Shown here piece after piece: positions 1 to 14,898 of a stretch of DNA of 64,000 bases (position 1 is its first letter; every line of letters starts with the position of its first letter). The notes beneath the pieces are model-generated. The model had not been told where the DNA came from and searched no databases. It saw only the letters and a program-made list of their open reading frames with translations. The stretch spans positions 1 through 64,000 of the forward strand of contig NZ_SZTO01000004.1 of the NCBI RefSeq assembly GCF_013369385.1, written 5' to 3'. This DNA comes from Vibrio sp. 05-20-BW147 (GTDB lineage Bacteria; Pseudomonadota; Gammaproteobacteria; Enterobacterales; Vibrionaceae). Made by a program: the position numbers and the translations under genes.

Positions 1-154
1 CCGCAAATTGGTGTGTTAGTTTGGTTGCGTCATACCATGTATATTTTTTCACCTCACCAGTGCAGGTTTTGCCATCCCAGCTTTGACCTAGGCTACAGCG
101 CATCCAAGTAAGGTTGGTTTCTTTGTCGTATACCGTTCCATTCGGATTAACCAC
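1..154 (-). repeat. Direct repeat, left copy (start of fourth DUF1566 domain)
   Basis: Positions 1-154 match 544-697 with three mismatches by eye, an in-frame spacing of 543 nt (181 codons). The repeat codes for the opening of a DUF1566 domain (NPNGTVYDKETNLTW onward). The left copy may extend past the window edge, in which case the whole variable domain is duplicated in tandem. Confidence 0.9.
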
Positions 155-1780
155 ATATTTGTTCACGGTTTCAGGCGGCTCTTTTTGTTCAGAAGAAGAG
201 AGCGCTGGTTTAGGTGTACTTGGATTTGATCCCGCTCGCACCAAACGGACGTGGTAGTAGTTTTTGTTCTTATATATGGGGCTGACGTAACCACTGTAGA
301 AGTAGACGTTCCACGCGCCGTCACTATTGCTGGCATAGGGCGAAGACGACCAATACGAATCATCGGATGTATTTGGAAATGCACTGATATTGATGGTTGG
401 CTCTTGGTAGTTGTCACCAAGGCATGCGCCATTGGTATCTTCCACATACTCTCTATTGGGGCGCGCTGATGGCTTACGCCCTTTTGAGCAGTAGACCAAA
501 GAATCCAGCTCTTCAACTGTGGGTAAGCGCCAAGCGGTTGAGCCCGCAAACTGGTGTGTTAGTTTGGTTGCGTCATACCATGTATATTTTTTCGCTTCAC
601 CAGTGCAGGTTTTGCCATCCCAGCTTTGACCTAGGCTACAGCGCATCCAAGTAAGGTTGGTTTCTTTGTCGTATACCGTTCCATTCGGATTAACCACTAG
701 GTTAGTCGCTTTGTCGTAGACAGTGCCATCAGCGTTAACCTCATACACTGACGTACTCTTATCAAGCACCAGCCGAACATAATTATCCGAGCGTGATTTT
801 TGATAAAATGTTAAGCCCGATCCAAATCCAACTATTCCTATTTTTTCACTATCAGCACTATCAACCGATGACGTCCAATAATCGGATCCAACTTTTGGCG
901 TATTGGGGAAAGCTGTTAAATCGATACGAGGTTGTGAATATTCTTTAAAGCAAGATTGTTGGGCGACATATTTTCCACTTGGAAGTTCCTTGTACTCATA
1001 ACCTTTAGGGCAAAGTATTAACGTTTCTAATTCATCTACCGTTGGCAGTCGCCAAAAGGGTTTTCCCACTTCTCTGGTACCAGTCACGATACCATTTGCG
1101 CTATTAATGACGGAAATTAAATCATAACTATAGAATTCTGTAGCCGTACCACTACATGTTTGACCGTCCCACGTTTGACCAACACTACAGCGCGCCCAAG
1201 TTAAGTTAGTGCGTTTATCGCTCACAGTCCCATCGTTATTGTCAATATATTCAGCCTGCCCAATAGAGCGAACCAAACGGATATATCCAGCAGCCTTTTT
1301 ATGGTAACTGAAGAGTAATCCTTCCGTGAACATGACAAACCAAGCCGTATCATCATATTTTTTTGTGGAAGACCAAAACACGCCCGTTGCAGCACTCCCA
1401 GGGAACACTAGCTGGTTTATCGCTGGTATATTGCAACTCGAACGTTGAAGGTCTTGTGGATCACTCGTTCCTCTGGTGCGTAACGTGGCCAACTCTTCAT
1501 GGGTAGGTAGTCGCCAATCACGACCTAAAGATGCGTATTTTTTTATAGCATCATTCCAACTAATCTGTAACGGAACACCTGTACAAGCACTGCCATTCCA
1601 GTTCAACCCTTCCGGACAGCGTTTCCACTCAAGCCCCGTTTCGTTATCAAGCACGATATCGTTTTTAATGGTGTAACGACTATCAGGTGCCCAGTTTTCT
1701 TTACTACAGTTATTAGCCTGCGCAATAGAGATACTGGTGCAAAACACAGTGACTAGCCATAACGCTTGTTTTATTTTCAT
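1..1780 (-). CDS. Secreted multi-domain DUF1566 protein, 3' end outside the window
   Basis: The frame is open from the ATG at 1780 (GGGG ribosome site 8 nt upstream) to the left edge, 593 codons with no stop, so the C-terminus is missing. Residues 1-22 are a Sec signal peptide ending AQA, with no lipobox. Then come DUF1566/Lcl_C-type domains at about residues 36-160, 165-345 and 365-520, and the start of a fourth near 545. Each has the GTVxDxxTxLxWxRC entry, a WRLPTxxEL core, a YWSSS-type strand and a closing VRLVR. The domain is common in secreted or surface proteins and is related to C-type-lectin folds. Domain 3 carries a segment matching a DGR variable repeat (234-355), and the fourth domain starts as a near-copy of the third. 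The ligand is unknown. It may be a surface adhesin or binding protein. Confidence 0.85.
   Translation of the reverse strand, partial: MKIKQALWLVTVFCTSISIAQANNCSKENWAPDSRYTIKNDIVLDNETGLEWKRCPEGLNWNGSACTGVPLQISWNDAIKKYASLGRDWRLPTHEELATLRTRGTSDPQDLQRSSCNIPAINQLVFPGSAATGVFWSSTKKYDDTAWFVMFTEGLLFSYHKKAAGYIRLVRSIGQAEYIDNNDGTVSDKRTNLTWARCSVGQTWDGQTCSGTATEFYSYDLISVINSANGIVTGTREVGKPFWRLPTVDELETLILCPKGYEYKELPSGKYVAQQSCFKEYSQPRIDLTAFPNTPKVGSDYWTSSVDSADSEKIGIVGFGSGLTFYQKSRSDNYVRLVLDKSTSVYEVNADGTVYDKATNLVVNPNGTVYDKETNLTWMRCSLGQSWDGKTCTGEAKKYTWYDATKLTHQFAGSTAWRLPTVEELDSLVYCSKGRKPSARPNREYVEDTNGACLGDNYQEPTINISAFPNTSDDSYWSSSPYASNSDGAWNVYFYSGYVSPIYKNKNYYHVRLVRAGSNPSTPKPALSSSEQKEPPETVNKYVVNPNGTVYDKETNLTWMRCSLGQSWDGKTCTGEVKKYTWYDATKLTHQFA
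234..355 (-). repeat. Candidate DGR variable repeat (VR-A) in the third DUF1566 domain
   Basis: These 122 nt code for residues 476-516 of the left-edge protein. They align without gaps to 9940-10061 in the lipoprotein gene. The two differ at 22 bases in 17 codons. None is synonymous and 20 of 22 are at codon positions 1 or 2. On the coding strand 15 differences involve an A in one copy, and the other 7 are pairs of non-A bases, as expected when both were mutated from a template A. Identity stops sharply after CGAGC, where the next base is already a synonymous difference. The conserved 3' end (CACGTCCGTTTGGTGCGAGC) would be the initiation-of-homing region. Confidence 0.8.
544..697 (-). repeat. 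Direct repeat, right copy (start of third DUF1566 domain)
   Basis: Partner of 1-154. Just upstream in the coding direction is a stuttered second domain opening: NADGTVYDKATNL is followed at once by NPNGTVYDKETNL. The third domain therefore appears to have had its beginning replaced or inserted by recombination with the fourth. Confidence 0.9.
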
Positions 1781-1907
1781 CCAATTTACCCCAATCTAGG
1801 TAGAGCCATATCATGGGTGCTTTTCTACGATTACTATTACGCACCAATTACATCAATCTTTGTTAACGCTTTGTGTCACTAAGACCCATATTTAATATCA
1901 TTTTGCC

Positions 1908-2417
1908 TTACGACCCTGTGTCGCTTTTCGCCAAGGAATTCAGGAACTGGGCAAACAGTGCATCAACCTCATCAATCGAAGACTTTAGACGGTGATCACC
2001 AGCGACAAGATGCAACGAAGCATGATTGACCTTGGCAAACTTTATTGAATGTTCCGCAGGGATCACACTGTCAGACCAGCCATGCACAACTTCAACATGA
2101 GTTCGGCAATGGTATTCCTGTTTCTTATAACCCGGCATGTAGAGTGCTGGAGCGAGCAAAAATAGGCCTTTTGTTGCCACGCTCTCTGAAGCCACCAAAG
2201 AGACATAACCACCCATACTGGAGCCAACAAGAGTGACTTCCTCTTCAATACCACTTAGCACGTTTAATAGGCGTTCAACTCTGAGGTCGGGGTCAAGCAT
2301 ATCGGTGTAGTCAATGCTATCAACTTGGTAACCAAACCTTTCAGCTGTGCTCGCCAATCGTTTTATTTTGCTGCCCCAAGGGCCACTTTCTTTTCCATGT
2401 GAGAAGATAACTTTCAA
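1908..2417 (-). CDS. Small alpha/beta hydrolase (YqiA/YcfP-like esterase)
   Basis: A 169-residue single-domain alpha/beta hydrolase, probably cytoplasmic. The nucleophile elbow is GSSMGG with Ser67. Asp116 (HGWSDSVIP) and His142 (AGDHRL) complete a plausible Ser-Asp-His triad. The N-terminal FSHGKESGPWGSK carries the oxyanion-side loop typical of the YqiA/YcfP/UPF0227 group. The size matches such small thioesterase- or esterase-like proteins. The start is UUG at 2417, supported by AAGGGG about 8 nt upstream; the ATG further upstream opens only a three-codon frame. The substrate is unknown. It is a single gene between the DUF1566 gene and the 2.6-8 kb operon. Confidence 0.75.
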   Translation of the reverse strand: MKVIFSHGKESGPWGSKIKRLASTAERFGYQVDSIDYTDMLDPDLRVERLLNVLSGIEEEVTLVGSSMGGYVSLVASESVATKGLFLLAPALYMPGYKKQEYHCRTHVEVVHGWSDSVIPAEHSIKFAKVNHASLHLVAGDHRLKSSIDEVDALFAQFLNSLAKSDTGS

Positions 2418-2617
2418 CTCATATCCCCTTAGTCGCTATTGAAGGCTCAGCCTACTTGATGAGCAAATATGGCTCTTAGCCTAATACCTGAAAGGCCATT
2501 TACCTCTACATTAACGTTAATAAGATGCTTTCCGTCATAACTCATTAGGCTCGCATCAGGCCACATTTATAAATCACTCTCAATAATCACTAACATACTA
2601 TCTATTGATAAAGTTAA

Positions 2618-4930
2618 TCACTGCGTTGCATCATCAAAATGAATGATTGCTTGCTGCCTTCGCCAATGTTCTTGATAGTCTTTCTCTAACGGCAACTTTT
2701 CTAACAACTGATGTTGTTGCAACGTCATTCGTGCCAGTTCGCGCCAGCGTAGGCACAGTTCTATCGGCAGTTTGTCGGCCAACTCTTTGGGCAGTTCACA
2801 CACTTGTTTCAGCACCTGTTGGTTTTGATTGGGCGTGAAACCTTGCTGGGGCAGTGAAATTAGGATTTGCAGCAACAATTCTTCGCTGGTTTGTTGCGCC
2901 ACGGGGTAGCGTGCTTGATGCAAGGAAAAGAGTTCGAGCAATGCCTCGAACGCCAACGCCTGCTGCCCTGCTTGCTGATGTTGATAATTGCGGCACAAGG
3001 TGGTGATTAAGCGCGATGCCCAGTTGGGCGCAGTATCGCTTTCATGGTTTTCTTCACTTTGATTATGTTGTTTAGCTTGCGCGCTTGGCTGCGCCAATAA
3101 CCAAGCAATGGGCGATGGCAGATGCTCGCAGGGTAAAACGCGCAGCAAGGGACCAAACTTTGTCTGCAAATGCGCAACAAACGGCTGTAATGACAGCTGC
3201 TGAGACTGCACATCGATCATCAGTTCTTGTAGTACCGCCAGCACAGCGCTGGGCAGTTGGCTTAGCGGCAGCAACAAGGCATTGTTTAGGCGCATTTCGG
3301 TATCGTATTCGTAACGCTGACTATCTTGCAGATAGTTGCCTTTGGCCCACATGGCATCGGCAACGCCGTGGAAAAAAGCCACGCGCTGCGCAAACTGCCA
3401 CCAACGCAACACGCGCGCCATGTCGCACGCATCACCATTGGCGTTTTGCCGTTGTGATTCAAAAAGCGCACGTACGTCAATATTAAGCCGCTGTTGGTGC
3501 TGTTGATAAAACTGCTCGCGTCCTTGGGGTGGTAACAAGTTTAACCAGTTAAGCAATAACGCTTCTGGGGTGTAGAGCAAGAACTGGTGGAAGGCGAACA
3601 CCAGCGGTGTCTCTAGTTGCTTGAGTAGCTGCTGCGCTTGTTTAGCGTGCCAAACGACAAATTCTGGCGATTTAACCCGTGCAGCAATGGCATCACAGGC
3701 TGCCAAGAAACGCTGCTCGCGCTCTGCCACATAGGCAAACCCCGCTGGGCTAAACGCATCGCGATGTGCTGGATAAAGAGCATCGTACTCACAAAAGGAG
3801 GCCAGTAACGATGGAAAAAGCGTTGTGCATTTTGGCAGGTTTTGCAGCCATCTTAACCAACGATTTTGCTGCGCGACATCCAACTGGCAAGCGTCACGTT
3901 GCAGCAGATAAAAGACGCGCTGTTGGCTATGCAGCAACGATTGCGGCAGCTCTTCTCGCTCAGGAAAAATAGGCAGTTCACGCCACAGCAGTGGTAACTG
4001 GTATAGGCTGAAGTCCAGCGCCAAGCTGGCTGTGGCATCGCCTTGGCGTTGGCACAGTAACAACCCGGTTTGAATCGCCAGCAAATGCTGGTAACCATCA
4101 TGCTGTTCCACCGGAAAATAAGCATGTTGGCGGCGCAGATAATCGCTATAGTAGGTGGCATCGCTATACTCGGCGCGTTGCTCGTCACTGAGGGTAATAA
4201 ACTGCTGACAAAGCCGATGAATGGCGTCACCTTCGGCGGCATTCTGTGCCAGCACCACCCAGAGTGAGGCAGAAAAATTGACGCTATCGTGCACATAACT
4301 GGCAAAGGTACGGTTTTTATCGATGTATTGCGGGCCAAGGGTATCAACAAGCAACAGCAAATCGGCGGCCAAGGCACTGGCCAATGCTGGCACCTGTTGT
4401 GGCACCACCAGCAACAGCTGTGTTTGTTGCTGGTGTAGCGTATGGCGCAGCTCAATAGCGTGCTGATGCACCTCACGCAGTGCTTTAACCTGCGGCAACC
4501 AAGACGACCACGGCAGCAGCGAATACAGCAGTAACGAAGTGAAAAACACCGCCACCAGCGCTACTTGGCCAAGTGGCGGTAGCGATAACATCAGTGCCCC
4601 ACCCAGCAGATACACCACGCACAAAAGCGCAAACTTGGGCAGCGTGCGCAATAAATAACTGCGCAAACACAGCAGCAAAGTAAGCGCTGCCATCGCCAAA
4701 CACATCAGCGCCTGCGCCCACAGAGTAAATAACCAAGCGGGCTGCTGGTTTAAAGTGTCACTCACGCTTAGCAACGCAAACAGCCAAACCAGCGTAAGCG
4801 TTGGCAGTAACGGCAACCACGCTTTAAACGCCCCGCGCCACTGGGTTTGGGTAAAACCTAGGTAGAGCGGGGCGGTAGTTTGTTGTGTGAGTAGATCGGC
4901 TAGGGACCGCGTTGACAATACAGTAGACAT
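2618..4930 (-). CDS. Large inner-membrane protein of unknown function
   Basis: 770 residues that I do not recognise. Residues about 35-160 hold four or five hydrophobic segments in two pairs (around LTLVWLFALL and LLCVVYLLGG), followed by a long, Gln- and Leu-rich soluble region of about 600 residues, probably helical and cytoplasmic. No catalytic motif is evident. It is the last gene of a three-gene minus-strand operon, starting 10 nt after the stop of the preceding lipoprotein gene. The gene is clearly richer in G+C than its operon partners, so the operon may be a composite. A membrane scaffold or transport-accessory role is possible but not shown. Confidence 0.7.
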   Translation of the reverse strand: MSTVLSTRSLADLLTQQTTAPLYLGFTQTQWRGAFKAWLPLLPTLTLVWLFALLSVSDTLNQQPAWLFTLWAQALMCLAMAALTLLLCLRSYLLRTLPKFALLCVVYLLGGALMLSLPPLGQVALVAVFFTSLLLYSLLPWSSWLPQVKALREVHQHAIELRHTLHQQQTQLLLVVPQQVPALASALAADLLLLVDTLGPQYIDKNRTFASYVHDSVNFSASLWVVLAQNAAEGDAIHRLCQQFITLSDEQRAEYSDATYYSDYLRRQHAYFPVEQHDGYQHLLAIQTGLLLCQRQGDATASLALDFSLYQLPLLWRELPIFPEREELPQSLLHSQQRVFYLLQRDACQLDVAQQNRWLRWLQNLPKCTTLFPSLLASFCEYDALYPAHRDAFSPAGFAYVAEREQRFLAACDAIAARVKSPEFVVWHAKQAQQLLKQLETPLVFAFHQFLLYTPEALLLNWLNLLPPQGREQFYQQHQQRLNIDVRALFESQRQNANGDACDMARVLRWWQFAQRVAFFHGVADAMWAKGNYLQDSQRYEYDTEMRLNNALLLPLSQLPSAVLAVLQELMIDVQSQQLSLQPFVAHLQTKFGPLLRVLPCEHLPSPIAWLLAQPSAQAKQHNQSEENHESDTAPNWASRLITTLCRNYQHQQAGQQALAFEALLELFSLHQARYPVAQQTSEELLLQILISLPQQGFTPNQNQQVLKQVCELPKELADKLPIELCLRWRELARMTLQQHQLLEKLPLEKDYQEHWRRQQAIIHFDDATQ

Positions 4931-4940
4931 CTATATAGCA

Positions 4941-7496
4941 CTAATCACAGGCTAAATAAGCTGCTCTTTCAAAGGTGTAGTGATGAGCAAAACTATTAGT
5001 TATCGAACATCCAGATGCATACTTGTTTGTGTCACTGTTGAAGCTTAAACATTTTTCTTGCCCTTTATAAATCCCTTTAGTACAACGAATGATAGCGGAG
5101 CCATCTTTTTCAAACTTGACAAAAGTATGGCAAGTATCGTTGGCTCCACAGTATGTATCGTCATCAACAGCATCCATTCTTGCATTCTGCGATTCAATAT
5201 GCCTTGTATCTTCACCAATGAACTGATTGTAAAGCTCACCTGTTTTAGACACTATCGAGTAGATTGTTCCTGATTGCCTTGGTGCCGGTGGTAGTTGTGC
5301 AAACGCGCTGAAAGCTAGCTTTTGGGTACCTTTGGCTTTCAGTTCTTTTGCGGCAACAAGTGACACTGATTTAATTTCTGCTGATATTTTCGCTACACCA
5401 TCGGGATACACCGCTGTGTATCCACCTAGCGTCCCGCGATCAAAATACGCAGTCTGAAATGCGCCAAACCTTACAGCATTCCGAGCCGTTGCATTGTCTG
5501 AGCTCAATCTCGAACTCACGACCTGTTCCAAACTAATGTGTGGTTTGGTAGTGGACGCTCCGAAAAGCTTTGCTTTTACTTCCTTTTCCAGTGGTAGATT
5601 GAATGAAAACTCAATCACCACATTAAAATCATGATACTGAGGGATAAAAGGCGCATTACTCCCTAACCTCAATTGGTAACCAACGCTGGCGGTGGCGTTA
5701 ACTTCATAAGAATACTCAGAAGCCCAACCCCAACGCGCGATTTTTCGGCCATCAACGGAAGAGTCTAAGTCTGTTAACTCGAGCCTAAACAGCCCATCTT
5801 TGTTTTTGATTGATTCAAAGGCAAAAGCCTCCAAAATCTTATGGTGTTCCGTTGTTTTGGCCAACTGCTGTGACTTTTGACCATCACTTGGTAACAACGT
5901 TAATTGATACGCTCGGAATTGTGCTAAAAATTGCCCCTTGTCTCTTAACAAAGCAACATAGGTCTCTTTGGTCTGTTGGTATACGTCTTGATATTTCGTC
6001 TTAGCAAAATCCTTTAGATATTTTTCATAGTCGTTTTCTGAAGTCAGTATCTTTGAAATGCTGATGAGGTCCTGTTTTTCGCCGGACAAATCGTATGCTT
6101 TCTTCAAAGATGCGTACGTATTCTGCGTTCTGTACAGCGACAGTAATTTCACCTTGGCCAAGGCTGAAATTTCCGAATTTTTGGTATTACGTTTAGAAAA
6201 ATCAATCAACTGCTCTTCTGAGGTCAATAAGGCCAGTTCAGATTTCAAATCGCCATTTTCCTTTGACCAAAGGTAAGCATTTTGGAAACCCAACACCGTT
6301 TGTTTCGAACGATATAAACCTATTAGTTCACTCTTTGCCGAATACACCACAGGTAACGCGACCGCAGGCGAGTAGAGCTTTACAAATTCTAAAAGTGCGT
6401 CTTCACCTTTGATCAATGCGTACTCGGAAGATAAATCACTCGAATCACCAGACCATTTAAACGCATTGCGATAACCTTGCACACTTTTCTGTTCTCTATA
6501 AAGACCAACTAGTCGATTCTTCACGTCAGCTGCAGAGCTGTGCGCTTTGTATTGCCCTAAGTAACTGACTAATACTGCCGTATCTTTAGAATACATCGCG
6601 TCTTTATATAAGAGCGTGCGAATCGCCTCTCTACTGGATGCAGTAATTGATTGATATCGTCTCTGTTGCTCTTTGCTGGCCGCCAACGTTACATCTTTAC
6701 TCATTACCCAACCATGCTGTTGGTTCTCTAATGTGACCCATAAGGCATCTGAATTACTTTCGATCACCATTAATTGCATCGCAGGGCTAAGACGAGCCTT
6801 AACATTTGTAAACTGCGGAGAGTCGTATAAGTTTGTTTCCCGAACCAATTTAGGTTCAGAAATCAAAGTGTTTACTTTTTTGTCGTTATATTTCTGAATA
6901 AACTGTCTCAGTTGAGAGATGTTTTTAGCATCCAATTTTTCATATTCAATTTCCAGCACCGAGAACAGTGCTTGCCGAGAGAAATAACTCCCTTTTGTTA
7001 CTTCGGAAAATTCCTCCAAGCCCTTTACATCTTTTGCATTGGTCAGCCTAGCCAACTCATTGATTAAAAACCTTGAATATTCACCGGGGTCTTGTTGTGA
7101 AAGATATTGATGGTAGATGGCTGAATCGTTCTTTTCTTTTGATAATTGATAATATGCCTCGCGCTCTTTTGCTTTGTGATGCGATTTTACTGCAACATCC
7201 AAGTTGAGCTGGTTTTTTGATTCAAACTCCGATGCATTATTAAAATATTCAATTGCTGATTGCGGCTCTTTTTTGGCCAATTTAAGTTCACCTAGCGCTG
7301 TCAGTGCATAAAACTGTCCGATACTCACACCCGATGCTTCATATCCTTTTAATGACTGCTCAAAGTGGCTTTGAGCACTATCTAGTTTATTTTCAGACAA
7401 GGATTGATAGCCATGCTGCAAGTGTTCTGTATTGGACAACTGACCAGCACAACCCAATAGCAAAAATAACAGTAAATAGCTGATTCTCTTAGCCAC
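4941..7496 (-). CDS. Large lipoprotein with TPR-like and SH3-like regions
   Basis: 851 residues from a GUG at 7496, preceded by GAGG about 8 nt upstream that overlaps the stop region of the upstream gene. The N-terminus (MAKRISYLLLFLLLGCAG) is a lipoprotein signal with lipobox LLGC. Residues about 30-100 look like TPR helices. A bacterial SH3-like segment (LYDSPQF...LWVTLENQQHGWV) lies near residues 220-275. Three related helical blocks containing YR-xxx-A-WSxxxxDL follow, suggesting degenerate repeats. The C-terminal 80 residues are Cys-rich (YCGANDTC, IRCTKG, EKCLS, SGCS, LACD), suggesting disulphides in the periplasm. Middle gene of an apparent operon, function unknown. Confidence 0.75.
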   Translation of the reverse strand: MAKRISYLLLFLLLGCAGQLSNTEHLQHGYQSLSENKLDSAQSHFEQSLKGYEASGVSIGQFYALTALGELKLAKKEPQSAIEYFNNASEFESKNQLNLDVAVKSHHKAKEREAYYQLSKEKNDSAIYHQYLSQQDPGEYSRFLINELARLTNAKDVKGLEEFSEVTKGSYFSRQALFSVLEIEYEKLDAKNISQLRQFIQKYNDKKVNTLISEPKLVRETNLYDSPQFTNVKARLSPAMQLMVIESNSDALWVTLENQQHGWVMSKDVTLAASKEQQRRYQSITASSREAIRTLLYKDAMYSKDTAVLVSYLGQYKAHSSAADVKNRLVGLYREQKSVQGYRNAFKWSGDSSDLSSEYALIKGEDALLEFVKLYSPAVALPVVYSAKSELIGLYRSKQTVLGFQNAYLWSKENGDLKSELALLTSEEQLIDFSKRNTKNSEISALAKVKLLSLYRTQNTYASLKKAYDLSGEKQDLISISKILTSENDYEKYLKDFAKTKYQDVYQQTKETYVALLRDKGQFLAQFRAYQLTLLPSDGQKSQQLAKTTEHHKILEAFAFESIKNKDGLFRLELTDLDSSVDGRKIARWGWASEYSYEVNATASVGYQLRLGSNAPFIPQYHDFNVVIEFSFNLPLEKEVKAKLFGASTTKPHISLEQVVSSRLSSDNATARNAVRFGAFQTAYFDRGTLGGYTAVYPDGVAKISAEIKSVSLVAAKELKAKGTQKLAFSAFAQLPPAPRQSGTIYSIVSKTGELYNQFIGEDTRHIESQNARMDAVDDDTYCGANDTCHTFVKFEKDGSAIIRCTKGIYKGQEKCLSFNSDTNKYASGCSITNSFAHHYTFERAAYLACD

Positions 7497-7506
7497 GACA
7501 ATTACC

Positions 7507-7953
7507 TCAAAACTTAAAAGTAACGGTATAAACAAACTCATTATTCTCAGGGATGTAACTTAACCCCTGAGAAATGTTGCTCGCTTCAGAACGTAGGCTG
7601 GAGGCTTGATTATCAAAATATTGTCCTGCGAGATAGCCAGCCGCAAAAACCGCGAGCCCCGCATAGAAAGCGATACGACCATCTTCACTAAATGTGTATT
7701 CTCCACTTCGTGTTTCTTCTAATGTCGCCAAAGCATATATAAAGCTACCTCCCCCAACAACATAAGAACTCCAACGTGAAGTATCTGCATAGACGTCATT
7801 CCTATCTGCTGCCGAAAGTAAATCTTGGTAACGCTCCTCTTGTTGCTCTAATTTATCGAGATCGAGAGCAGAGGGTGCGGTATTTGGCATGGTGTTAGCT
7901 AAACCACTGTTAGCAAACAATACCAAAGATAAAAACGTAATTATTTTTTTCAT
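7507..7953 (-). CDS. Small exported protein, first gene of the unknown operon
   Basis: 148 residues with a Sec signal peptide (MKKIITFLSLVLFANSGLA). An acidic or Gln-rich helix (LDKLEQQEERYQDLLSAADRN) and a hydrophobic Gly/Ala-rich stretch (about 95-112) follow, and the tail ends in alternating, Phe-terminated residues (YTVTFKF) reminiscent of an outer-membrane strand. The ATG at 7953 has GGAG 6 nt upstream. The stop is 10 nt before the GUG of the large lipoprotein gene, so the two are probably co-transcribed and coupled. I do not recognise the family; it may be a partner of the lipoprotein in the envelope. Confidence 0.7.
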   Translation of the reverse strand: MKKIITFLSLVLFANSGLANTMPNTAPSALDLDKLEQQEERYQDLLSAADRNDVYADTSRWSSYVVGGGSFIYALATLEETRSGEYTFSEDGRIAFYAGLAVFAAGYLAGQYFDNQASSLRSEASNISQGLSYIPENNEFVYTVTFKF

Positions 7954-8255
7954 TTCAACTCCATTAACAAAAAATAATGATAATTCCCACCATAAAATAG
8001 TGTGGCAATATAATTGGTCATATAAGCAGGGAAACCATACCAGCGTCTAAATTTTCACCACACTATAAAACCAGCGCCCAATACTGCGTCTAGCACCAGG
8101 GCGAGCGCATGAACGTTAGTTGCCCAATTTGAGTTTAAATATCGAGCACAGAATGAGTAACATTTGATTACCGTAACCTCTTTTATCGAGCAGTTGAAAA
8201 GCAAGCCACTCCATTTAATCAAATATTAAACAGACATGCGGTAGTCCTGTGGTTT
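7954..8255. other. AT-rich intergenic region, no gene seen
   Basis: About 300 bases between two minus-strand genes. It should hold the promoter of the 7507-7953 gene, but I could not single out a box. No complete attC-like or tRNA structure is present. Confidence 0.5.
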
Positions 8256-9137
8256 TTAACCATTACTGTTTAGATTCGAGAAATTGGCATACTTTCCTCC
8301 ATTTTCTAGAAGATATATTTCCAACTCATCGAATTTAGCATTGTGTGCATAATCGAGCATAGTCCAACCCCGTCTATCAACGGCATTGATATCTAATCCT
8401 GATTTTATTGAACGCTTAACAAGATCAAAAGTAAATTTATCTTTTCTCTGGTCATTTATTATAAGGTGAGGAATATAGTATGGTTCATCATAAATTCCGT
8501 TTTTATCTTTTGACTTGAAAGCATAAGGTTCACTAAGATCTAGACCATGCTTTACCATTAAATCGAACGCATTATATGGCATTTGCTTCCAAGAGTGCCC
8601 TTTGGTGTAGACTAAACCCATATGAAAATCATCTCGCAAATAGTATTTATTTATGTTCCTTTTTGCTCCGGAAATCAACACATATTCTATTGCTTTCAGT
8701 TCAATTTGATTGGGGCTTTTTTGGAAATAAAAGAGTCTATTAATCAAGCTTCCACTAACTTTTCCAGTTCTATTACTATTGTAATAGCAATCTAAGTCCT
8801 CTCCTATTTCCACAAAGTACTTCACTAACTCAAGATCTTTTTCTTTTAGATCATAATCTATTACATCCCCCAAGAGGCAAGAGGAATTCTCTGTTCTAGC
8901 CAGTTTCAATTTGTACTTATTAAATAATTTTGCCATTTGTAAAGATGGCTTATTTTTTTGAATCAAAATATGGTAACTCGCGTTATTTAACGTACCTCCC
9001 TTTTTGATCATCTCTTCTGCTTTGGCTAGATCATTTTCTTTGACCGCCTTTTCCAGCATACGGTCGTAAACAGTTTGCTCAGCTAGAGCACAAACTGGCG
9101 AAAGTAAAAGTAAAAGTAAAAATATTTTTTTAAACAT
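8256..9137 (-). CDS. Exported ankyrin-like repeat protein
   Basis: 293 residues with a signal peptide (MFKKIFLLLLLLSPVCALA). Ankyrin-like units can be read at about residues 25-55 (LEKAVKENDLAKAEEMIKKGG), 97-120 (DLELVKYFVEIGEDL) and 240-285 (DLVKRSIKSGLDINAVDRRGWTMLDYA then EIYLLENGG). These bind proteins in other ankyrin families; the partner here is unknown. AAAGG sits 7 nt before the ATG. The gene is markedly AT-rich compared with neighbours, suggesting horizontal origin. It is transcribed alone. Confidence 0.65.
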   Translation of the reverse strand: MFKKIFLLLLLLSPVCALAEQTVYDRMLEKAVKENDLAKAEEMIKKGGTLNNASYHILIQKNKPSLQMAKLFNKYKLKLARTENSSCLLGDVIDYDLKEKDLELVKYFVEIGEDLDCYYNSNRTGKVSGSLINRLFYFQKSPNQIELKAIEYVLISGAKRNINKYYLRDDFHMGLVYTKGHSWKQMPYNAFDLMVKHGLDLSEPYAFKSKDKNGIYDEPYYIPHLIINDQRKDKFTFDLVKRSIKSGLDINAVDRRGWTMLDYAHNAKFDELEIYLLENGGKYANFSNLNSNG

Positions 9138-9248
9138 AAAACAACCTTTATATTTAACTAGTTATAAATACGGTTCCATTTTTATTTCAATCAATAACAT
9201 TGATATGACGATCACCGTTATCAATCTTGAAAGTAGCACTAAACGCCA

Positions 9249-9794
9249 TCACTTTGCGTCACGCACCAAACGGACGTGGACTAAGCCGGTGCAACTGAAG
9301 CAGCCCTCGAAAACACTCCCCGCCCAGAAGCGAACGTTCCACACAACGTAACTATCGTCGACTACGGGCGAAGACGACCAATACCAGTCCGATGGCGTAT
9401 TGGGAAACTGCTGGTTATTAATCGCAGGTTCCCAGCAGCGATATTCGACAATCGAGGCCAGCTCATTTTTATTCGGCAAGCGCCAATCACTGAATCCGGC
9501 CAAGCTATGTTGCGCGGCAGCTGCTAAGGCCTCTGGCCAACTAAAGACAGTGGCCTCGCCAGTGCAATCGGCACCATCCCAGCTTTGCCCCAGGCTACAG
9601 CGCTGCCAGATAAGCCCGGTGGTATGGTGAGTAACAGTGCCATCACCGTTATCGCTAAAATCCGCGCTGGGCGTAGTGGCTGCAATAGCCGTGTTTTCAT
9701 TACCGGCACATAAGCTGCTGGCATGGGCATTCACCCCCAGCATTAACACCAATAACACCCAAGCCCGTGGCCAGTAATGATTGATTGTTAGCAT
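9249..9794 (-). CDS. Small secreted single-domain DUF1566 protein
   Basis: 181 residues with a signal peptide ending about VNAHAS, then one DUF1566/Lcl_C domain from about residue 42 to the end. Landmarks are NGDGTVTHHTTGLIWQRC, the SLGQSWDG segment shared almost verbatim with the left-edge protein, FSDWRLPNKNELASIV, WYWSSSP and the closing HVRLVRDAK. AGGA lies about 9 nt before the ATG. Its last 41 codons share both ends with the two VR segments but have a different backbone in between, rich in NNC codons (CGC, TTC, GGC, TGC, ACC). This suggests a variable repeat from another template. Likely surface-exposed or released; ligand unknown. Confidence 0.8.
   Translation of the reverse strand: MLTINHYWPRAWVLLVLMLGVNAHASSLCAGNENTAIAATTPSADFSDNGDGTVTHHTTGLIWQRCSLGQSWDGADCTGEATVFSWPEALAAAAQHSLAGFSDWRLPNKNELASIVEYRCWEPAINNQQFPNTPSDWYWSSSPVVDDSYVVWNVRFWAGSVFEGCFSCTGLVHVRLVRDAK
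9262..9383 (-). repeat. Possible DGR variable repeat of a second template (VR-B)
   Basis: The first 18 coding bases (TATTGGTCGTCTTCGCCC) and the last 17 (CACGTCCGTTTGGTGCG) are identical to the VR-A/VR-C segments. The interior differs also at bases that cannot come from template A, including a synonymous GTT/GTC, and is one codon longer. It cannot therefore derive from the same template. The run of NNC codons would fit an AAC-rich template mutated at A. This is inference from one copy only. Confidence 0.45.
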
Positions 9795-9827
9795 AATATC
9801 TATCCTTTATCGCAAAACATTTTTAGC

Positions 9828-9848
9828 GCGGCGGGCAATAACCGCCGC
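9828..9848 (-). terminator. GC-rich hairpin downstream of the variable lipoprotein gene
   Basis: A 7-bp perfect stem (GCGGCGG with CCGCCGC) and a 7-nt loop lie about 80 nt beyond the stop of the 9930-11243 gene. On the minus strand an AAAATGTTTT stretch follows, giving a weak terminator. DGR targets can also carry a hairpin after the VR, but those described lie closer. Confidence 0.4.
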
Positions 9849-9929
9849 ACAATGGAAGAGGATGCGCAACGCCCGTTAGGCAACTGAGTTAGCTTTCGCA
9901 TCACCTCTGCTTATTTACCAAAAACCCAA

Positions 9930-11243
9930 TCACTGTCCGGCTCGCACCAAACGGACGTGGTTGTGGTAGTTGCCCTTATAGCTGTTGCTGACGCCACCAC
10001 CGTTGAAGTGGACGTACCCCGCGTAGTTACTATGGCTGGCATGGGGCGAAGACGACCAATAAGGACCGTATTGCGGCGTATATGGAAAATAACTTTGCTC
10101 TATCGCGAGGTTAAAACGGCCATTATGGACAATGCTGAGTAACTCATTGACTGAGGGCAGTCGCCAATCGCTGGCACCACAGAGCCCCTGACTGTTGACC
10201 GCATTGACAAAGGCTTGAGTATCACAAGCACTGCCTTGGCAAGTACCGCCGTTTTGTGTACCGGCATCACCACCATTGGTGCTGTTATCGGGGTTGTACC
10301 AAGTGTAGGTATGCGCAGCATCGCGTAGGCCAGCGCTGCCGGCGGGTTGTTTGACTTCCCAAATTAGGCCGGTGACGTTATCGCGCACGCAGCTCCAGTC
10401 GCTGGCGCTGGCGGCTAATTCCTCGCCATTGGCATCTAGCTTGGTAAAGTCAAAGCCTACCGCACCAGCACCGACTTTAGGCAATTTGCCTGCTGCCGCT
10501 TGAGCATCGCGGCCATGCTCGCCATCTTGCCCCTCATAGCCTTGTACTGGGCAATCAAGGTTGTTTTGGCTGCCATCGGCGCACCAATCGATGCCGGTAT
10601 CGTTAAGTGGTTGGGTGGCGGCAAAGGCGGTTATTTCGCCACTTGGCGCACTTTCACCGGCTGGATGCACCGCGGTAACCACCAGATGCCATACATGCGG
10701 GGTTAAGTTGCCGATGCGGATCGGAGGCTGCACGTTTTGCAACCAAGTGCCATCGGCTTTGCTGGCGTAACTGTCGGGCTCGATGCCCGGTTCACGCGCG
10801 TAATACACATGGTAACTGGTGGCGCCTGCAACCGCTGGCCAATCGAGTAACAAGCTGCTGGGGCCTTTACTGAGTCGAACATCGGTCACGGCAGGCAACT
10901 GACTAAAGGTAACATTCACCGTACAGGCCTGAGTAACATTTAAAATGGTGATGCTGTTCCCCTCGATTGCACTATCACACCCCACTACCGTATCAACTTT
11001 AAAGCCAGCATCGGGTAGAACGGTAAAGACTGTCTTTTTACCCAACTCAACAGCGGCACTTTCAGGCATCACCACGCCTCCAACTGATGTTTCAGTGCGG
11101 ACTACAATACGCTGCTCCACTTGCGGTTCACCGCTATTTTGTCCACTGTCATCCCCACCACTTTCACCGCCGCCGCAACCATACAAGGTGGGGGGCAGCA
11201 AACTGGCGAACAGTAGCGATTTGAAGAGGTTGTTACTTAGCAT
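9930..11243 (-). CDS. Variable surface lipoprotein: repeat domain, FN3, DUF1566 with VR
   Basis: 437 residues from the ATG at 11243, which has AAAAGGA about 10 nt upstream; an upstream in-frame extension of 16 codons lacks this. The signal peptide ends in lipobox LYGC followed by a Gly-rich linker, so the protein is probably anchored to the outer membrane. Residues about 40-115 resemble a divergent InlB B-repeat, 120-215 a fibronectin type III domain (DVRLSKGPSSLLLDWPAVAG), and 235-437 the DUF1566 domain (DWSCVRDNVTGLIWEV, DWRLPSVNELLSIV, YWSSSP, HVRLVRAGQ). Residues 395-435 are encoded by VR-C. The layout matches lipid-anchored display proteins diversified by DGRs in other bacteria (Treponema TvpA, Legionella LdtA). 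An AraC-type operator lies 157-194 bp upstream. Confidence 0.85.
   Translation of the reverse strand: MLSNNLFKSLLFASLLPPTLYGCGGGESGGDDSGQNSGEPQVEQRIVVRTETSVGGVVMPESAAVELGKKTVFTVLPDAGFKVDTVVGCDSAIEGNSITILNVTQACTVNVTFSQLPAVTDVRLSKGPSSLLLDWPAVAGATSYHVYYAREPGIEPDSYASKADGTWLQNVQPPIRIGNLTPHVWHLVVTAVHPAGESAPSGEITAFAATQPLNDTGIDWCADGSQNNLDCPVQGYEGQDGEHGRDAQAAAGKLPKVGAGAVGFDFTKLDANGEELAASASDWSCVRDNVTGLIWEVKQPAGSAGLRDAAHTYTWYNPDNSTNGGDAGTQNGGTCQGSACDTQAFVNAVNSQGLCGASDWRLPSVNELLSIVHNGRFNLAIEQSYFPYTPQYGPYWSSSPHASHSNYAGYVHFNGGGVSNSYKGNYHNHVRLVRAGQ
9940..10061 (-). repeat. Candidate DGR variable repeat (VR-C) at the C-terminus of the lipoprotein
   Basis: 122 nt ending three codons before the stop, the usual location of a VR. 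It aligns without gaps to 234-355 with 100 identical positions. The variable codons are AAC, TAC, CAC, GGC and the like, as expected from AAC template codons mutated at A. All other codons, including their third positions, are identical in both genes. Confidence 0.85.
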
Positions 11244-11399
11244 CACAGGTTTTCCTTTTCTGCATAGGGCGGTCATAAATTGGGCGTTCACACTGCGTGA
11301 AGCAAAGAGGATTGTTTTTCTCAGCTGGCAAGCGTCGCGCGCATTTTGCGAATATTTTCCTTGTAAATTATCAACTTCATCAATAGCAGCGCATCAAAT

Positions 11400-11490: not shown

Positions 11491-14400
11491 TTAGAAATAG
11501 AGGTAACTGTATCCCTGCTGTTGTAAGTTAGTTAAGTAATCCTTTGTGGTTTGGTTTAACGGATTTTCTGTTAGGAGAATCGCAGCTTGTTTGCGTAACG
11601 CTTCAATACCAGATACCGTACTTAATTCGTTATTAGACGCATAGAACCAGGTTAATGATGGGTTTTGGCTCACATCTAAAGTGGTGATCTGATTACCTGT
11701 AACATCCAAGTGTTCAAGTTTGCCAAGTTGACGAAGTTCTAGCTCTGTCAGCAAGTTCCCCATTGTTTGCAAGTTGACCAACTGTGGGTTCATGCTGACA
11801 TCCAAAGCCAATGTTCCATTGTTGTTGATGCCGAAGTCCGTCAATTTGTCTAACTGACTTATGTCTATGTTGGCTAGCTTATTGTCGCTTACATAGAGCA
11901 TTTGCAGCTGGCGGTTATTGCTCACATCCAAACTTGCAAGTTGGTTCGTGGAGACATTCAAGTGATTTAACGCTCCTAGCGTACGAACATCGAGCGTAGT
12001 GAGTTGGTTGTGTTCTACAACCATTTGTATCAGGTTGAGGTTATTGCTCACATCTAAACTCGTGAGCTTGTTTTTATTTAAACTTAAAGAGAGTAGTTGA
12101 GACAAATGCGCGGTATCAATGGTTGCCAATTGGTTGTCATTGGCAAATAACCAAGTCAGTTCCGGGTTCTGACTGAGATCTAAGACCGATAACTGGTTAT
12201 TAGAAACTTGGAGTTCCTGAAGCAAGGGCAGAGAAGAAAGATCTAACGTGGTCAATTGACATGACTCCGCATTCAACTTACTCATCTCGGTGTTGTTTGA
12301 AAGATCCAAGGTACCTATCTGATTGAACGACACCGTCAACGCGTAGAGCAAAGTCAGTGGAGAGACATCTAGCGCGGTAAGTTGATTGCTGCCTACCCAT
12401 AGCTCTTCAAGCTTCAGGTTACCCGTGACATCCAAACTGGTCAGTTGATTGTTGTCTACCTTCAATATTTTCAAATAAATGTTGTTTTGCACATTCAATG
12501 CTGGCAACTGATTGTCATCAACATCGAGGTATTCCAGTAGCCCAAGGTGTCCAACCTCAAGGCTGGTTAGTTGGTTTTCCCACACTGCAACCTCTTTTAG
12601 CAGGGTGTTGTTGATCATATTTAGCTGGCTGAGAGAGTTACCGCCAGCTTTCAGGCTCACCAATTGGGTTAGGTTGGTGATATCAAGTTCTGTGAGTTGA
12701 TTCTCAGTCACATTTAAACTTTCTAACGCGTACAACGCACTAACATCAACACTCAACAGTTGATTGTTCGATAGGTTGAGGCTTTTCAGCTGGGTAAGTT
12801 GGTCAATCGAAATTTGGTTGAGCGATGAGTTCGTCACTTCTAGGGTAGTTAATTGCATTAAGCCATTTAATGCTAAGTTATCAATATGGGATGACGACAA
12901 GTAAAGTGAGTGTAGATTACTCGGTAATTCATTCGCTTGCAGTTCTGCGAGTTGTACATTCGCCAGCGTCACTGTTTGTAAGTTGGTGAAGTTGGCTAAG
13001 CCCTGCAAGCTGAGGAACGGTTGCTGAGAGTCTAAACAATAAAGCTCTGTTAAGTTTTCAAAGTGAGTTACGTTGCTCGCATCCACACATTGTGCTAACA
13101 GCGGATCTTGCACTTGCGCCTGTTGCGACAATGGGAGTGAAACTGGCGGTTCAACCGGTAAGCCGCTCACTTTGAAAAAGGTACCGTAGTAGACCTCTTG
13201 ATGTGCTTTGTTTAGTACCAAATAACGGTATTCACTCTGCCCTTCTGGCGATAAGTGGCGAGTAAACCACATTTGACTTGGCTCAGCATCGCTCGCGGGG
13301 GTTTGATCGTAGAACAGCACGCGATTGTTTTGTAGAGACCAAGTGGATTCCTCATTCGCTTCAATGTCCAATGCGAAGCCGTTTTGAGCAAAACGCAGTG
13401 TAAAAGGCGCGTTCGGCTGAGCAACAGGCATCGCTTCTTCAACACGCCAATCCCCAATTAGCTCCTGATAAGGCACCATCAACGTTTGATGCGTATCCAT
13501 CACCATCGCGTCTTCGATTAATGTGAGTTCTCCCTCTAGTGAGGCGTTGTGAAGACGGTCAAACACTCGCGTGATCTTTGCCATAGCGCGACCATTACTT
13601 TGATTCACCACTTGCAGCTCGATTTTCTTCAGCCGTTTTAGCCAACCTTCTTTATCTCGGTAGGTCGCCACCGGGTTGGAAACCGTTATGGTGTGCAGAC
13701 GATTGGCGTATGTCCAGGTGAGCTCACTACCTGTTAGCGAGTAGATCGAACCAGTACCATCCGCATTGAGCTGTAAAACGAACGCTTCTTCTGCCAACTG
13801 CACGATGTATTCTGCCGCAGACAACTGCGCGTTATCGCTAACCAGTTGCGTGTCTTGGAGAATTTGCTGCTGAACTGGTGCAAAATCGTTGCTTTGCGTA
13901 GCTTGGGTTTCGATACTTTGCAATGCATCGGCGTTGCTCATAAATGCCAATGTGTTCTCAACGCCGCTGGGTAGTTGATACTCAGCTGGTTTATCGACCA
14001 CCAGCTTAATCAATGTTGCACGGCGTAGCACCTCTTGGGTATCGACAGAAAGCAACGCTTGATTGAGCGCTTGGTCACTTTGTAGGTTTTGTGAGGCGAT
14101 CAACGAACTGACTGCACTGGTGACATTGGTGATGTTAACGCCGAAATCAACCGAAGTGTCAATGGTGACGGCCTCCGACTCAGTTTGGCCACTTTGTGCA
14201 ATCAAGCTGGTCAACGATGGGATAATCGAACGAAATTCAACAAACGCTTGCTCCCCCACACCGCTGGCTCGCAGTTCAATTGGCAGTGACAACGCAATCA
14301 GTTGGTCAATATCAAGCTCGAGCACATACTGGCCATTCGCATCCGCTTGCGCCGTGTTCAGCGCTTGTCCGTTCAATACTGCGGTCACGTTAGCATTGGC

Positions 14401-14898
14401 GATGACACTGTCTGTCACCATGCCGGTAATCGTCACGGTTGAGACTTTACGTAGTACCTTAACGTCATGCACATAACGCGCGAGGTTATTGGCGCTGTCC
14501 GTGATTTCGACGGCGATTTGATACACCTGGTCTTTGGTCACTTTCGGCGCGATTATTTTTACGATGTTGCTGTCATCTATTTTTACGATGTCGCTGTCAT
14601 CATCGCCTGCCTCAACAACACTAAAGCCTTCAGGCAGTTTCCAGTCCATTGTCAGTTCGCCTTGTTCTTGGCTAAATGCGCTCAACACGACTTCTAACGT
14701 GCCCTGACTGTTGATTCTTTTTGGTGCGTCAAACTGAACACTAATCGCTTTGTGCTGCACAGCTTGTATTCGTTCTGTTGCGGGTGCTGTTGTGTTGCCA
14801 CCAGCGCTGCCATCGCTACCGCCACCACCACAGGCGGTAAGCATCATGGTGATACAGAGCAATAGGCTGTGTATCCAAGTTTTTGGGTTTCTGTTCAT
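11491..14898 (-). CDS. Giant leucine-rich-repeat lipoprotein
   Basis: 1135 residues. The signal peptide ends in lipobox LTAC followed by GGGGSDGSAGG, giving a lipid anchor and flexible linker. Residues about 50-150 look like an Ig/cadherin-type segment, and 150-215 like a carboxypeptidase-regulatory-like fold (ITGMVTDSVIANANVTAVLNG). Residues about 220-600 are unassigned. From about 630 to 1110 there are roughly twenty LRRs of 21 residues with the pattern L-x-x-LDVSxNxxLxxLxVxxNQ, close to internalin-type and Vibrio/Shewanella LRR proteins. LRRs bind proteins; the ligand is unknown. GAGG lies 8 nt before the ATG. The gene begins 47 nt after the OMP gene and is probably co-transcribed with it. 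Confidence 0.85.
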   Translation of the reverse strand: MNRNPKTWIHSLLLCITMMLTACGGGGSDGSAGGNTTAPATERIQAVQHKAISVQFDAPKRINSQGTLEVVLSAFSQEQGELTMDWKLPEGFSVVEAGDDDSDIVKIDDSNIVKIIAPKVTKDQVYQIAVEITDSANNLARYVHDVKVLRKVSTVTITGMVTDSVIANANVTAVLNGQALNTAQADANGQYVLELDIDQLIALSLPIELRASGVGEQAFVEFRSIIPSLTSLIAQSGQTESEAVTIDTSVDFGVNITNVTSAVSSLIASQNLQSDQALNQALLSVDTQEVLRRATLIKLVVDKPAEYQLPSGVENTLAFMSNADALQSIETQATQSNDFAPVQQQILQDTQLVSDNAQLSAAEYIVQLAEEAFVLQLNADGTGSIYSLTGSELTWTYANRLHTITVSNPVATYRDKEGWLKRLKKIELQVVNQSNGRAMAKITRVFDRLHNASLEGELTLIEDAMVMDTHQTLMVPYQELIGDWRVEEAMPVAQPNAPFTLRFAQNGFALDIEANEESTWSLQNNRVLFYDQTPASDAEPSQMWFTRHLSPEGQSEYRYLVLNKAHQEVYYGTFFKVSGLPVEPPVSLPLSQQAQVQDPLLAQCVDASNVTHFENLTELYCLDSQQPFLSLQGLANFTNLQTVTLANVQLAELQANELPSNLHSLYLSSSHIDNLALNGLMQLTTLEVTNSSLNQISIDQLTQLKSLNLSNNQLLSVDVSALYALESLNVTENQLTELDITNLTQLVSLKAGGNSLSQLNMINNTLLKEVAVWENQLTSLEVGHLGLLEYLDVDDNQLPALNVQNNIYLKILKVDNNQLTSLDVTGNLKLEELWVGSNQLTALDVSPLTLLYALTVSFNQIGTLDLSNNTEMSKLNAESCQLTTLDLSSLPLLQELQVSNNQLSVLDLSQNPELTWLFANDNQLATIDTAHLSQLLSLSLNKNKLTSLDVSNNLNLIQMVVEHNQLTTLDVRTLGALNHLNVSTNQLASLDVSNNRQLQMLYVSDNKLANIDISQLDKLTDFGINNNGTLALDVSMNPQLVNLQTMGNLLTELELRQLGKLEHLDVTGNQITTLDVSQNPSLTWFYASNNELSTVSGIEALRKQAAILLTENPLNQTTKDYLTNLQQQGYSYLYF

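What the first reader, a model, noticed from the sequence alone, without database searches (positions are those of the whole stretch)
234..10061. Two adenine-mutagenised variable repeats: signature of a diversity-generating retroelement
The 122-nt segments 234-355 and 9940-10061 (both minus strand, inside DUF1566 domains of two otherwise different secreted proteins) align without gaps. Of 122 positions 100 are identical. The 22 differences fall in 17 codons, none is synonymous, and 20 are at codon positions 1 or 2, often AAC versus TAC, CAC or GGC. On the coding strand each difference can be derived from an A: 15 have A in one copy, and the rest are two non-A bases. Third positions in between are identical. 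Ordinary divergence or selection would leave synonymous changes and G/C-site changes. Adenine-specific mutagenic homing from one template explains the pattern. C-type-lectin-like and DUF1566 domains are known DGR targets; lipoprotein display is known from Treponema TvpA and Legionella LdtA. The sequence pattern is seen directly; the DGR itself is inferred.
Basis: partly seen in the sequence, partly recalled or inferred. Interest (0 to 1): 0.95.

Follow-up and report, generated by a model that had tools for sequence, protein, structure and literature searches.

The report
Hypervariable genes without their mutation machine
This Vibrio carries genes, predicted to encode secreted proteins, whose variable positions fall mostly on the adenines of the template in a relative's intact gene-diversifying element, but no such enzyme or template is found in its own assembled genome, so the variants were likely written before that machinery was lost.

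Summary
Three more VR-like copies exist; all five lie in Lcl_C/DUF1566 domains of three genes. A relative, Vibrio gallaecicus, has an intact DGR at the corresponding gene pair: target, Avd, template, RT, target. Its two VRs differ from its template at adenines in 22 of 23 and 19 of 19 positions. That independent template predicts where the window's two segments differ (17 of 43 A positions, 4 of 62 others; p=4e-5). Between window gene C and its Aeromonas ortholog the VR has no third-position difference, against 70 in 269 body codons. The window genome shows no DGR-type RT or template; its one RT match is a retron/DRT type V enzyme. A sister genome shows a deletion scar. I read these as orphaned DGR targets. 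Leftover targets are published for Treponema denticola, and a two-DUF1566-target DGR for V. cholerae: a new member of a known kind.

The parts
1..1780 (-). Gene A (N-terminal part, 593 aa in the window): predicted secreted protein with tandem Lcl_C domains; most simply continues on contig C25 (343-aa open frame there, with VR copies A4 and A5)
   Evidence: exact 170-base overlap of the end of C25 with the start of C4
234..355 (-).
9930..11291 (-). Gene C: lipoprotein-like protein (LYGC lipobox read by eye) with a C-terminal Lcl_C domain; relatives named V. cholerae, V. navarrensis and Aeromonas have hypervariable ends
9940..10061 (-).
9249..9794 (-). Gene D: predicted secreted 181-aa Lcl_C protein, second target of the pair
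9259..9383 (-). VR-like end of gene D, diverged and probably decaying (two extra codons, many third-position changes)
9795..9929 (-). 135-bp gap between C and D, where V. gallaecicus carries Avd, TR and RT; no trace of them found here

Best explanation
These are likely orphaned target genes of a diversity-generating retroelement (DGR): their variable repeats carry the substitution pattern of adenine-specific rewriting from a shared template, while no template or DGR reverse transcriptase is found in this genome's assembly. Inferred mechanism: an Avd-RT complex copied a template rich in AAC codons into cDNA with random bases at adenines. The cDNA replaced the 3' part of the Lcl_C domains of genes A, C and D, guided by a conserved 3' end (..GTCCGTTTGGTGCGAGCCGGACAGTGA in gene C). 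That would have changed predicted ligand-binding loops of secreted proteins and left the scaffold and the third codon positions intact. The core is then thought to have been lost, or the targets acquired without it, so that the present variants are probably frozen; D and A5 look as if they already drift. Shown: the pattern, the V. gallaecicus core and template, the template's prediction of the variable sites, the absence of matches in this assembly, and a deletion scar in a sister genome. Inferred: past activity in this lineage, present inactivity, and ligand binding.
For: Pattern: 0 synonymous of 17 changed codons, and VR against upstream within one gene. Template: V. gallaecicus locus L114 has C-like target, Avd (PF22296 43.6 bits over its 40-bit cut-off; PHROG 'Avd protein of DGR'), non-coding TR, RT (same PHROG as the VHML RT) and D-like target. 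TR to VR: 22 of 23 and 19 of 19 differences at A. The TR's A positions predict variable positions: A3 against C 17/43 and 4/62, p=4.4e-5; window C against A. allosaccharophila C 24/43 and 2/62, p=5e-10. Window A4, window C, Aeromonas C and Aeromonas D share all 35 third bases while each pair differs at 25-26 first and second positions. C against the Aeromonas ortholog: VR 0 synonymous and 17 nonsynonymous codons, positions 16/9/0; body 48 and 43, positions 32/26/70. Among 24 of the 26 aligned alleles, K/Q/E/M/W make up 13 of 432 residues at 18 variable VR columns against 186 of 933 at 39 variable upstream columns. Core not found. Loss seen elsewhere: G093 has the start of avd joined to the RT tail, with 4 stops.
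Against: No RT or template in the genome, so activity cannot be shown here. The template used is a relative's, not the window's own; 4 of 21 counted A3-C differences are at its non-A positions. Codon-sized length differences between VRs (35-37 codons) are not a normal product of retrohoming (general knowledge). A5 and D do not fit well and were left out of the column tests. Window C against G184 C shows 7 of 42 third-position changes in the VR. The assembly has 119 contigs, so an unassembled core is possible though unlikely for a single-copy gene.
Confidence: 0.77

Rival explanations
1. The targets are still rewritten by a cognate DGR core that is outside this assembly: on a mobile element, in a gap, or in part of the population, acting in trans.
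For: VRs A3, A4 and C look freshly written, with third bases uniform (A4, C) or nearly so (A3: 2 of 35) even across genera. Among gene C alleles, 13 of the 15 pairs with scaffold identity of 0.93 or more share only 0.06-0.39 of 18 variable VR residues. V. cholerae strain 1311-69 is published with one TR and two DUF1566 VRs (PMC6642488, passages read).
Against: A near-identical 3' end was found only at targets or their homologs, in 3 of 227 genus genomes (this pattern does not reach the V. gallaecicus locus, so a diverged template would be missed). No match in viral contigs (exact patterns), nor in plasmids, phages or E. coli. RTs on plasmids (20 of 22 records listed) and phages (11 of 11) are at most about 36% identical to the V. 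gallaecicus RT. The other 2 of the 15 closest allele pairs have identical VRs: P0022/P0023 with identical scaffolds, and P0004/P0007 on scaffolds 0.946 identical, a sign of stable inheritance.
Confidence: 0.15
2. Ordinary diversifying selection plus gene conversion among repeated lectin-like domains, without a retroelement.
For: Tandem homologous domains in one gene; upstream parts also hold more nonsynonymous than synonymous changed codons (18 and 10). A block shared with A. allosaccharophila ends at a VR, so VRs probably recombine.
Against: It does not explain why third positions are identical and why another species' non-coding template marks the variable sites by its adenines, nor the deficit of K/Q/E/M/W.
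Confidence: 0.05

Closest known systems
Vibrio gallaecicus DGR locus (L114, found here; RT protein P0121)
   Same: Same two target types (long C-like lipoprotein, short D-like protein), same Lcl_C ends, similar VR and 3' end
   Different: Has Avd, TR and RT between the targets; the window has a 135-bp gap there
V. cholerae strain 1311-69 DGR (PMC6642488, passages read)
   Same: One template with two VRs at the ends of two DUF1566 proteins
   Different: Reported with its template; I had no way to fetch its sequence, so homology to the window locus is not tested
Leftover DGR targets in Treponema denticola isolates lacking RT and TR (PMC4891356; abstract, passages and section 11 read)
   Same: Targets with A-patterned VRs but no core in the genome
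   Different: Other phylum; target family not compared here
Retron/DRT type V (RT_V + CSD_V), the window genome's only RVT_1 match
   Same: A reverse transcriptase
   Different: Falls in PHROG 2825 and PADLOC RT_V, not in PHROG 1423 with the VHML and V. gallaecicus RTs; on another contig (C24)

Membership tests
Complete diversity-generating retroelement | DGR-clade reverse transcriptase | tested here: not met
   Own genome: RVT_1 one match, a type V retron/DRT RT; VHML RT 0 matches at E<=1e-10; V. gallaecicus RT 0 matches at E<=0.001, with the V. gallaecicus genome as positive control. No RT tree was built
Complete diversity-generating retroelement | Template repeat | tested here: not met
   Only 5 VR-like places in the genome at E<=0.001, all in Lcl_C ends; 3' end with up to 3 mismatches: the 5 targets, plus 13 places at 3 mismatches; 18 in all against 21 for the control
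Complete diversity-generating retroelement | Accessory Avd | tested here: inconclusive
   tblastn of the V. gallaecicus Avd against the window and C25:60001-71182: nothing credible; the whole genome was not searched with Avd
DGR target gene (variable protein) | Variable repeat with substitutions concentrated at template adenines | tested here: met
   By the relative's template; A5 and D deviate
DGR target gene (variable protein) | Conserved 3' end shared by VRs (homing-site-like) | tested here: met
   its function is not tested
DGR target gene (variable protein) | C-type-lectin-like fold displaying the variable residues | tested here: inconclusive
   Lcl_C family; best model mean pLDDT 85.9; best solved match Legionella Lcl C-terminal domain, Foldseek E 2.7e-3, no match at E<=0.001; TvpA only at E 6.5; sequence profile gives the same Lcl domain at E 0.03. 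Variable residues were not mapped on the model
DGR target gene (variable protein) | Ongoing diversification in the strain | not testable with these tools
   No reads or further isolates of this strain available
Retron/DRT type V (for the RT on C24) | Type V RT next to a cold-shock-like partner | tested here: met
   PADLOC RT_V 532.9 bits over 385 of 385 positions; CSD_V 99.8 bits

The most novel reading that the evidence does not exclude
A split DGR: an island of target genes moves between Vibrio and Aeromonas without its core and is rewritten in trans whenever a circulating RT-template cassette visits, so the hypervariable repertoire belongs to the community rather than to one genome.
Probability: 0.14. 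Interest if true: 0.8.

Novelty: new member of a known kind. Interest (0 to 1): 0.5.

Why it matters
It shows that genes with DGR-written patterns persist in genomes that surveys anchored on a reverse transcriptase would miss, here in Vibrio and Aeromonas. It supplies an intact relative (V. gallaecicus) and a scarred one (G093), which together make the loss of the core, and whether the repeats freeze afterwards, directly testable.

Tried and rejected
A DGR in the window genome: rejected after Pfam RVT_1, VHML RT and V. gallaecicus RT searches. The RT on C24 as the DGR enzyme: rejected (PADLOC RT_V 533 bits with a CSD_V neighbour, PHROG 2825). The orphan VR fragment in A. allosaccharophila (L082:9326-9408) as a template: rejected by eye, it is a truncated VR and not AAC-rich. 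Hairpins behind the repeats: 13 VR ends and one TR end folded, no shared structure by eye. Viral contigs as a source of the core: two distant RT loci only, 36-37% identity, not examined further; gene C relatives none. Genus DGR-like RT loci of G171, G141 and G004: no convincing VR homolog in the 11 kb fetched around each. The sequence of V. cholerae 1311-69 is not in the collections offered to me in a form I could name, and I did not obtain it.

Rows dropped: A5 and D of the window, G184_D, the two G093 VRs and the Aeromonas fragment are not in the column tests, because of length, poor fit or missing part. One codon was removed from the 36-codon VRs to fit the 35-codon template, which leaves 21 of the 22 differences in the A3-C test; with MAFFT's own gap the C-ortholog VR counts 16/9/0 instead of 16/10/0. 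P0024 and P0032 were left out of the residue count, P0032 out of the allele comparison. The Fisher tests treat positions as independent. A check that I withdrew: the mean VR identity over all 300 allele pairs (0.16) equals the within-column expectation by construction, so it is no evidence; I now use the 15 closest pairs. For that reason, and because it is a part of the first rival, the novel case went from 0.17 to 0.14.

Full report
Observation. In a codon comparison there are 22 differences in 17 codons, none synonymous, at codon positions 15/5/2, and 15 have an A in one copy. The window is contig C4:1-64000 of a 4.47-Mb, 119-contig genome. A DNA search of that genome with the first segment gives five VR-like places at E<=0.001: C4:200-400, C4:9936-10061, C4:9326-9407, C25:70672-70869 and C25:70156-70329. 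All five overlap Lcl_C (DUF1566) domains. The end of C25 and the start of C4 overlap exactly by 170 bases. So the pieces on both are most simply one long protein, here gene A, with VRs A3, A4 and A5; more identical repeats could be collapsed at the join. Genes C (9930-11291) and D (9249-9794) are the other two targets.

The genome. RVT_1 gives one match in the genome, on C24. It scores 533 bits with PADLOC RT_V, has a CSD_V neighbour, and falls in another PHROG than the VHML and V. gallaecicus RTs. The VHML phage RT finds nothing in the genome at E<=1e-10, nor does the V. gallaecicus RT at E<=0.001. No sixth copy of the repeat and no template-like 3' end was found. An unassembled core cannot be excluded.

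Related loci. A pattern scan of 84,980 species genomes found one record, Aeromonas allosaccharophila CECT 4199. It holds orthologs of C and D and a truncated VR. It has no RVT_1 match, and the 36 other genomes searched in its genus have no such VR. A 3.5-kb block next to the targets is 90.9% identical between that Aeromonas contig and C25, which suggests lateral transfer. The block ends at a VR, so VRs probably also act as recombination points. A protein search gives alleles of gene C, some named V. cholerae, V. navarrensis and Aeromonas (the best 120 of 1697 listed). In an alignment of 26 of them the scaffold is shared and most VR columns vary. Of 300 allele pairs, 15 have scaffold identity of 0.93 or more. 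Two of these have identical VRs; the other 13 share 0.06-0.39 of the 18 most variable VR columns. Over all pairs VR identity rises only weakly with scaffold identity (Spearman 0.19, p=8e-4). So VRs turn over fast but can also be inherited unchanged.

The intact relative. Of 227 genus genomes, 37 match the VHML RT at E<=1e-10, most of them weakly and not classified here, and 73 match a gene C protein at E<=1e-12. One genome, G130, holds a DGR-type RT between a C-like and a D-like gene. The order on the minus strand is C-like target, Avd, template, RT, D-like target. Avd passes the Pfam cut-off and matches the PHROG 'Avd protein of DGR', but lies below the NCBIfam cut-off (42.7 of 80). Template to VR differences fall on adenines in 22 of 23 and 19 of 19 cases.

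The test. That template is independent of the window. Window C against Aeromonas C gives 24 of 43 against 2 of 62 (p=5e-10). Three window copies (A3, A4, C) give 28 of 43 against 5 of 62. In a wider set of seven copies it is 35 of 43 against 15 of 62; 9 of the 10 added non-A columns vary in G184 copies. Window A4, window C, Aeromonas C and Aeromonas D have identical third bases in all 35 codons, while each pair differs at 25-26 first and second positions. For C against its Aeromonas ortholog, 70 of 269 body codons differ at the third position, and 0 of 42 VR codons (p=1e-5). So the VRs were most simply rewritten from like templates after the gene bodies diverged. Against this, window C compared with G184 C has 7 of 42 third-position changes in the VR, no significant deficit per codon (p=0.14), although third positions are still a smaller share of its changes than in the body (p=4e-5). 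G184's C and D copies (its gene C ends like P0003, named V. navarrensis) thus look decayed (6 and 8 of 35 third bases off the family consensus), as do window D and A5 by eye.

Loss of the core. Among seven genomes searched with the V. gallaecicus RT, only G130 has it intact. G093 has the same two targets and, between them, the first bases of avd joined to the RT tail with four stops: a deletion scar. G184 has only weak matches (26-30% identity) in 442-aa frames at six places, which I take to be group II intron enzymes (not tested); G167 has one weak match; G000, G219 and G227 have none. In the window, G184 and Aeromonas the gap between C and D is short and no trace of the core was found in it.

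Function. The targets have signal peptides or a lipobox by eye. The C-terminal domain of gene C is modelled at mean pLDDT 85.9. Its best solved relative is the Legionella Lcl C-terminal domain. Ligand binding and display are inferred.

What is known. PMC6642488 (passages read) reports a V. cholerae 1311-69 DGR with one template and two DUF1566 targets. PMC4891356 (abstract, passages and section 11 read) reports T. denticola isolates with targets but neither RT nor template, read as likely leftovers of lost cores. PMC3521204 (passages read) reports other Vibrio DGRs (V. cholerae HE-09, Vibrio sp. RC586). PMC8144416 and PMC8934634 were read in passages only. In the listings, I saw no title or abstract start describing core-less DGR targets in Vibrio or Aeromonas. 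The kind is known; this member, its intact relative and the scar appear not to be described in what I could search.

Noticed in passing
L001 (G000:C24:1-2921): Retron/DRT type V system: RT_V protein followed by a CSD_V cold-shock-like protein, at the end of a contig; likely an anti-phage system.
   Followed up: partly
L082:663-4156 and L083:6812-10308: A 3.5-kb block is 90.9% identical between Aeromonas allosaccharophila and this Vibrio and ends at a VR: likely lateral transfer, with VR-to-VR recombination joining gene D to the flank of gene A.
   Followed up: partly
L082:9326-9408: Orphan 3' piece of a VR without its gene in A. allosaccharophila.
   Followed up: yes
window 11491-14898: 1135-aa leucine-rich-repeat protein beside the targets; L116 has a similar-looking LRR gene one gene further away from its targets.
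   Followed up: no
window 2618-7953: Three genes without Pfam match; 5163-7975 is 92% identical to a stretch of L116.
   Followed up: no
NZ_AP022111.1 89658-90782 and several Vibrio plasmids: Plasmid-borne RTs about 34-36% identical to the V. gallaecicus DGR RT; their class and templates were not examined.
   Followed up: no
L120 (G171), L121 (G141): RTs 49% and 42% identical to the VHML DGR RT in two other Vibrio genomes; likely separate DGRs.
   Followed up: no
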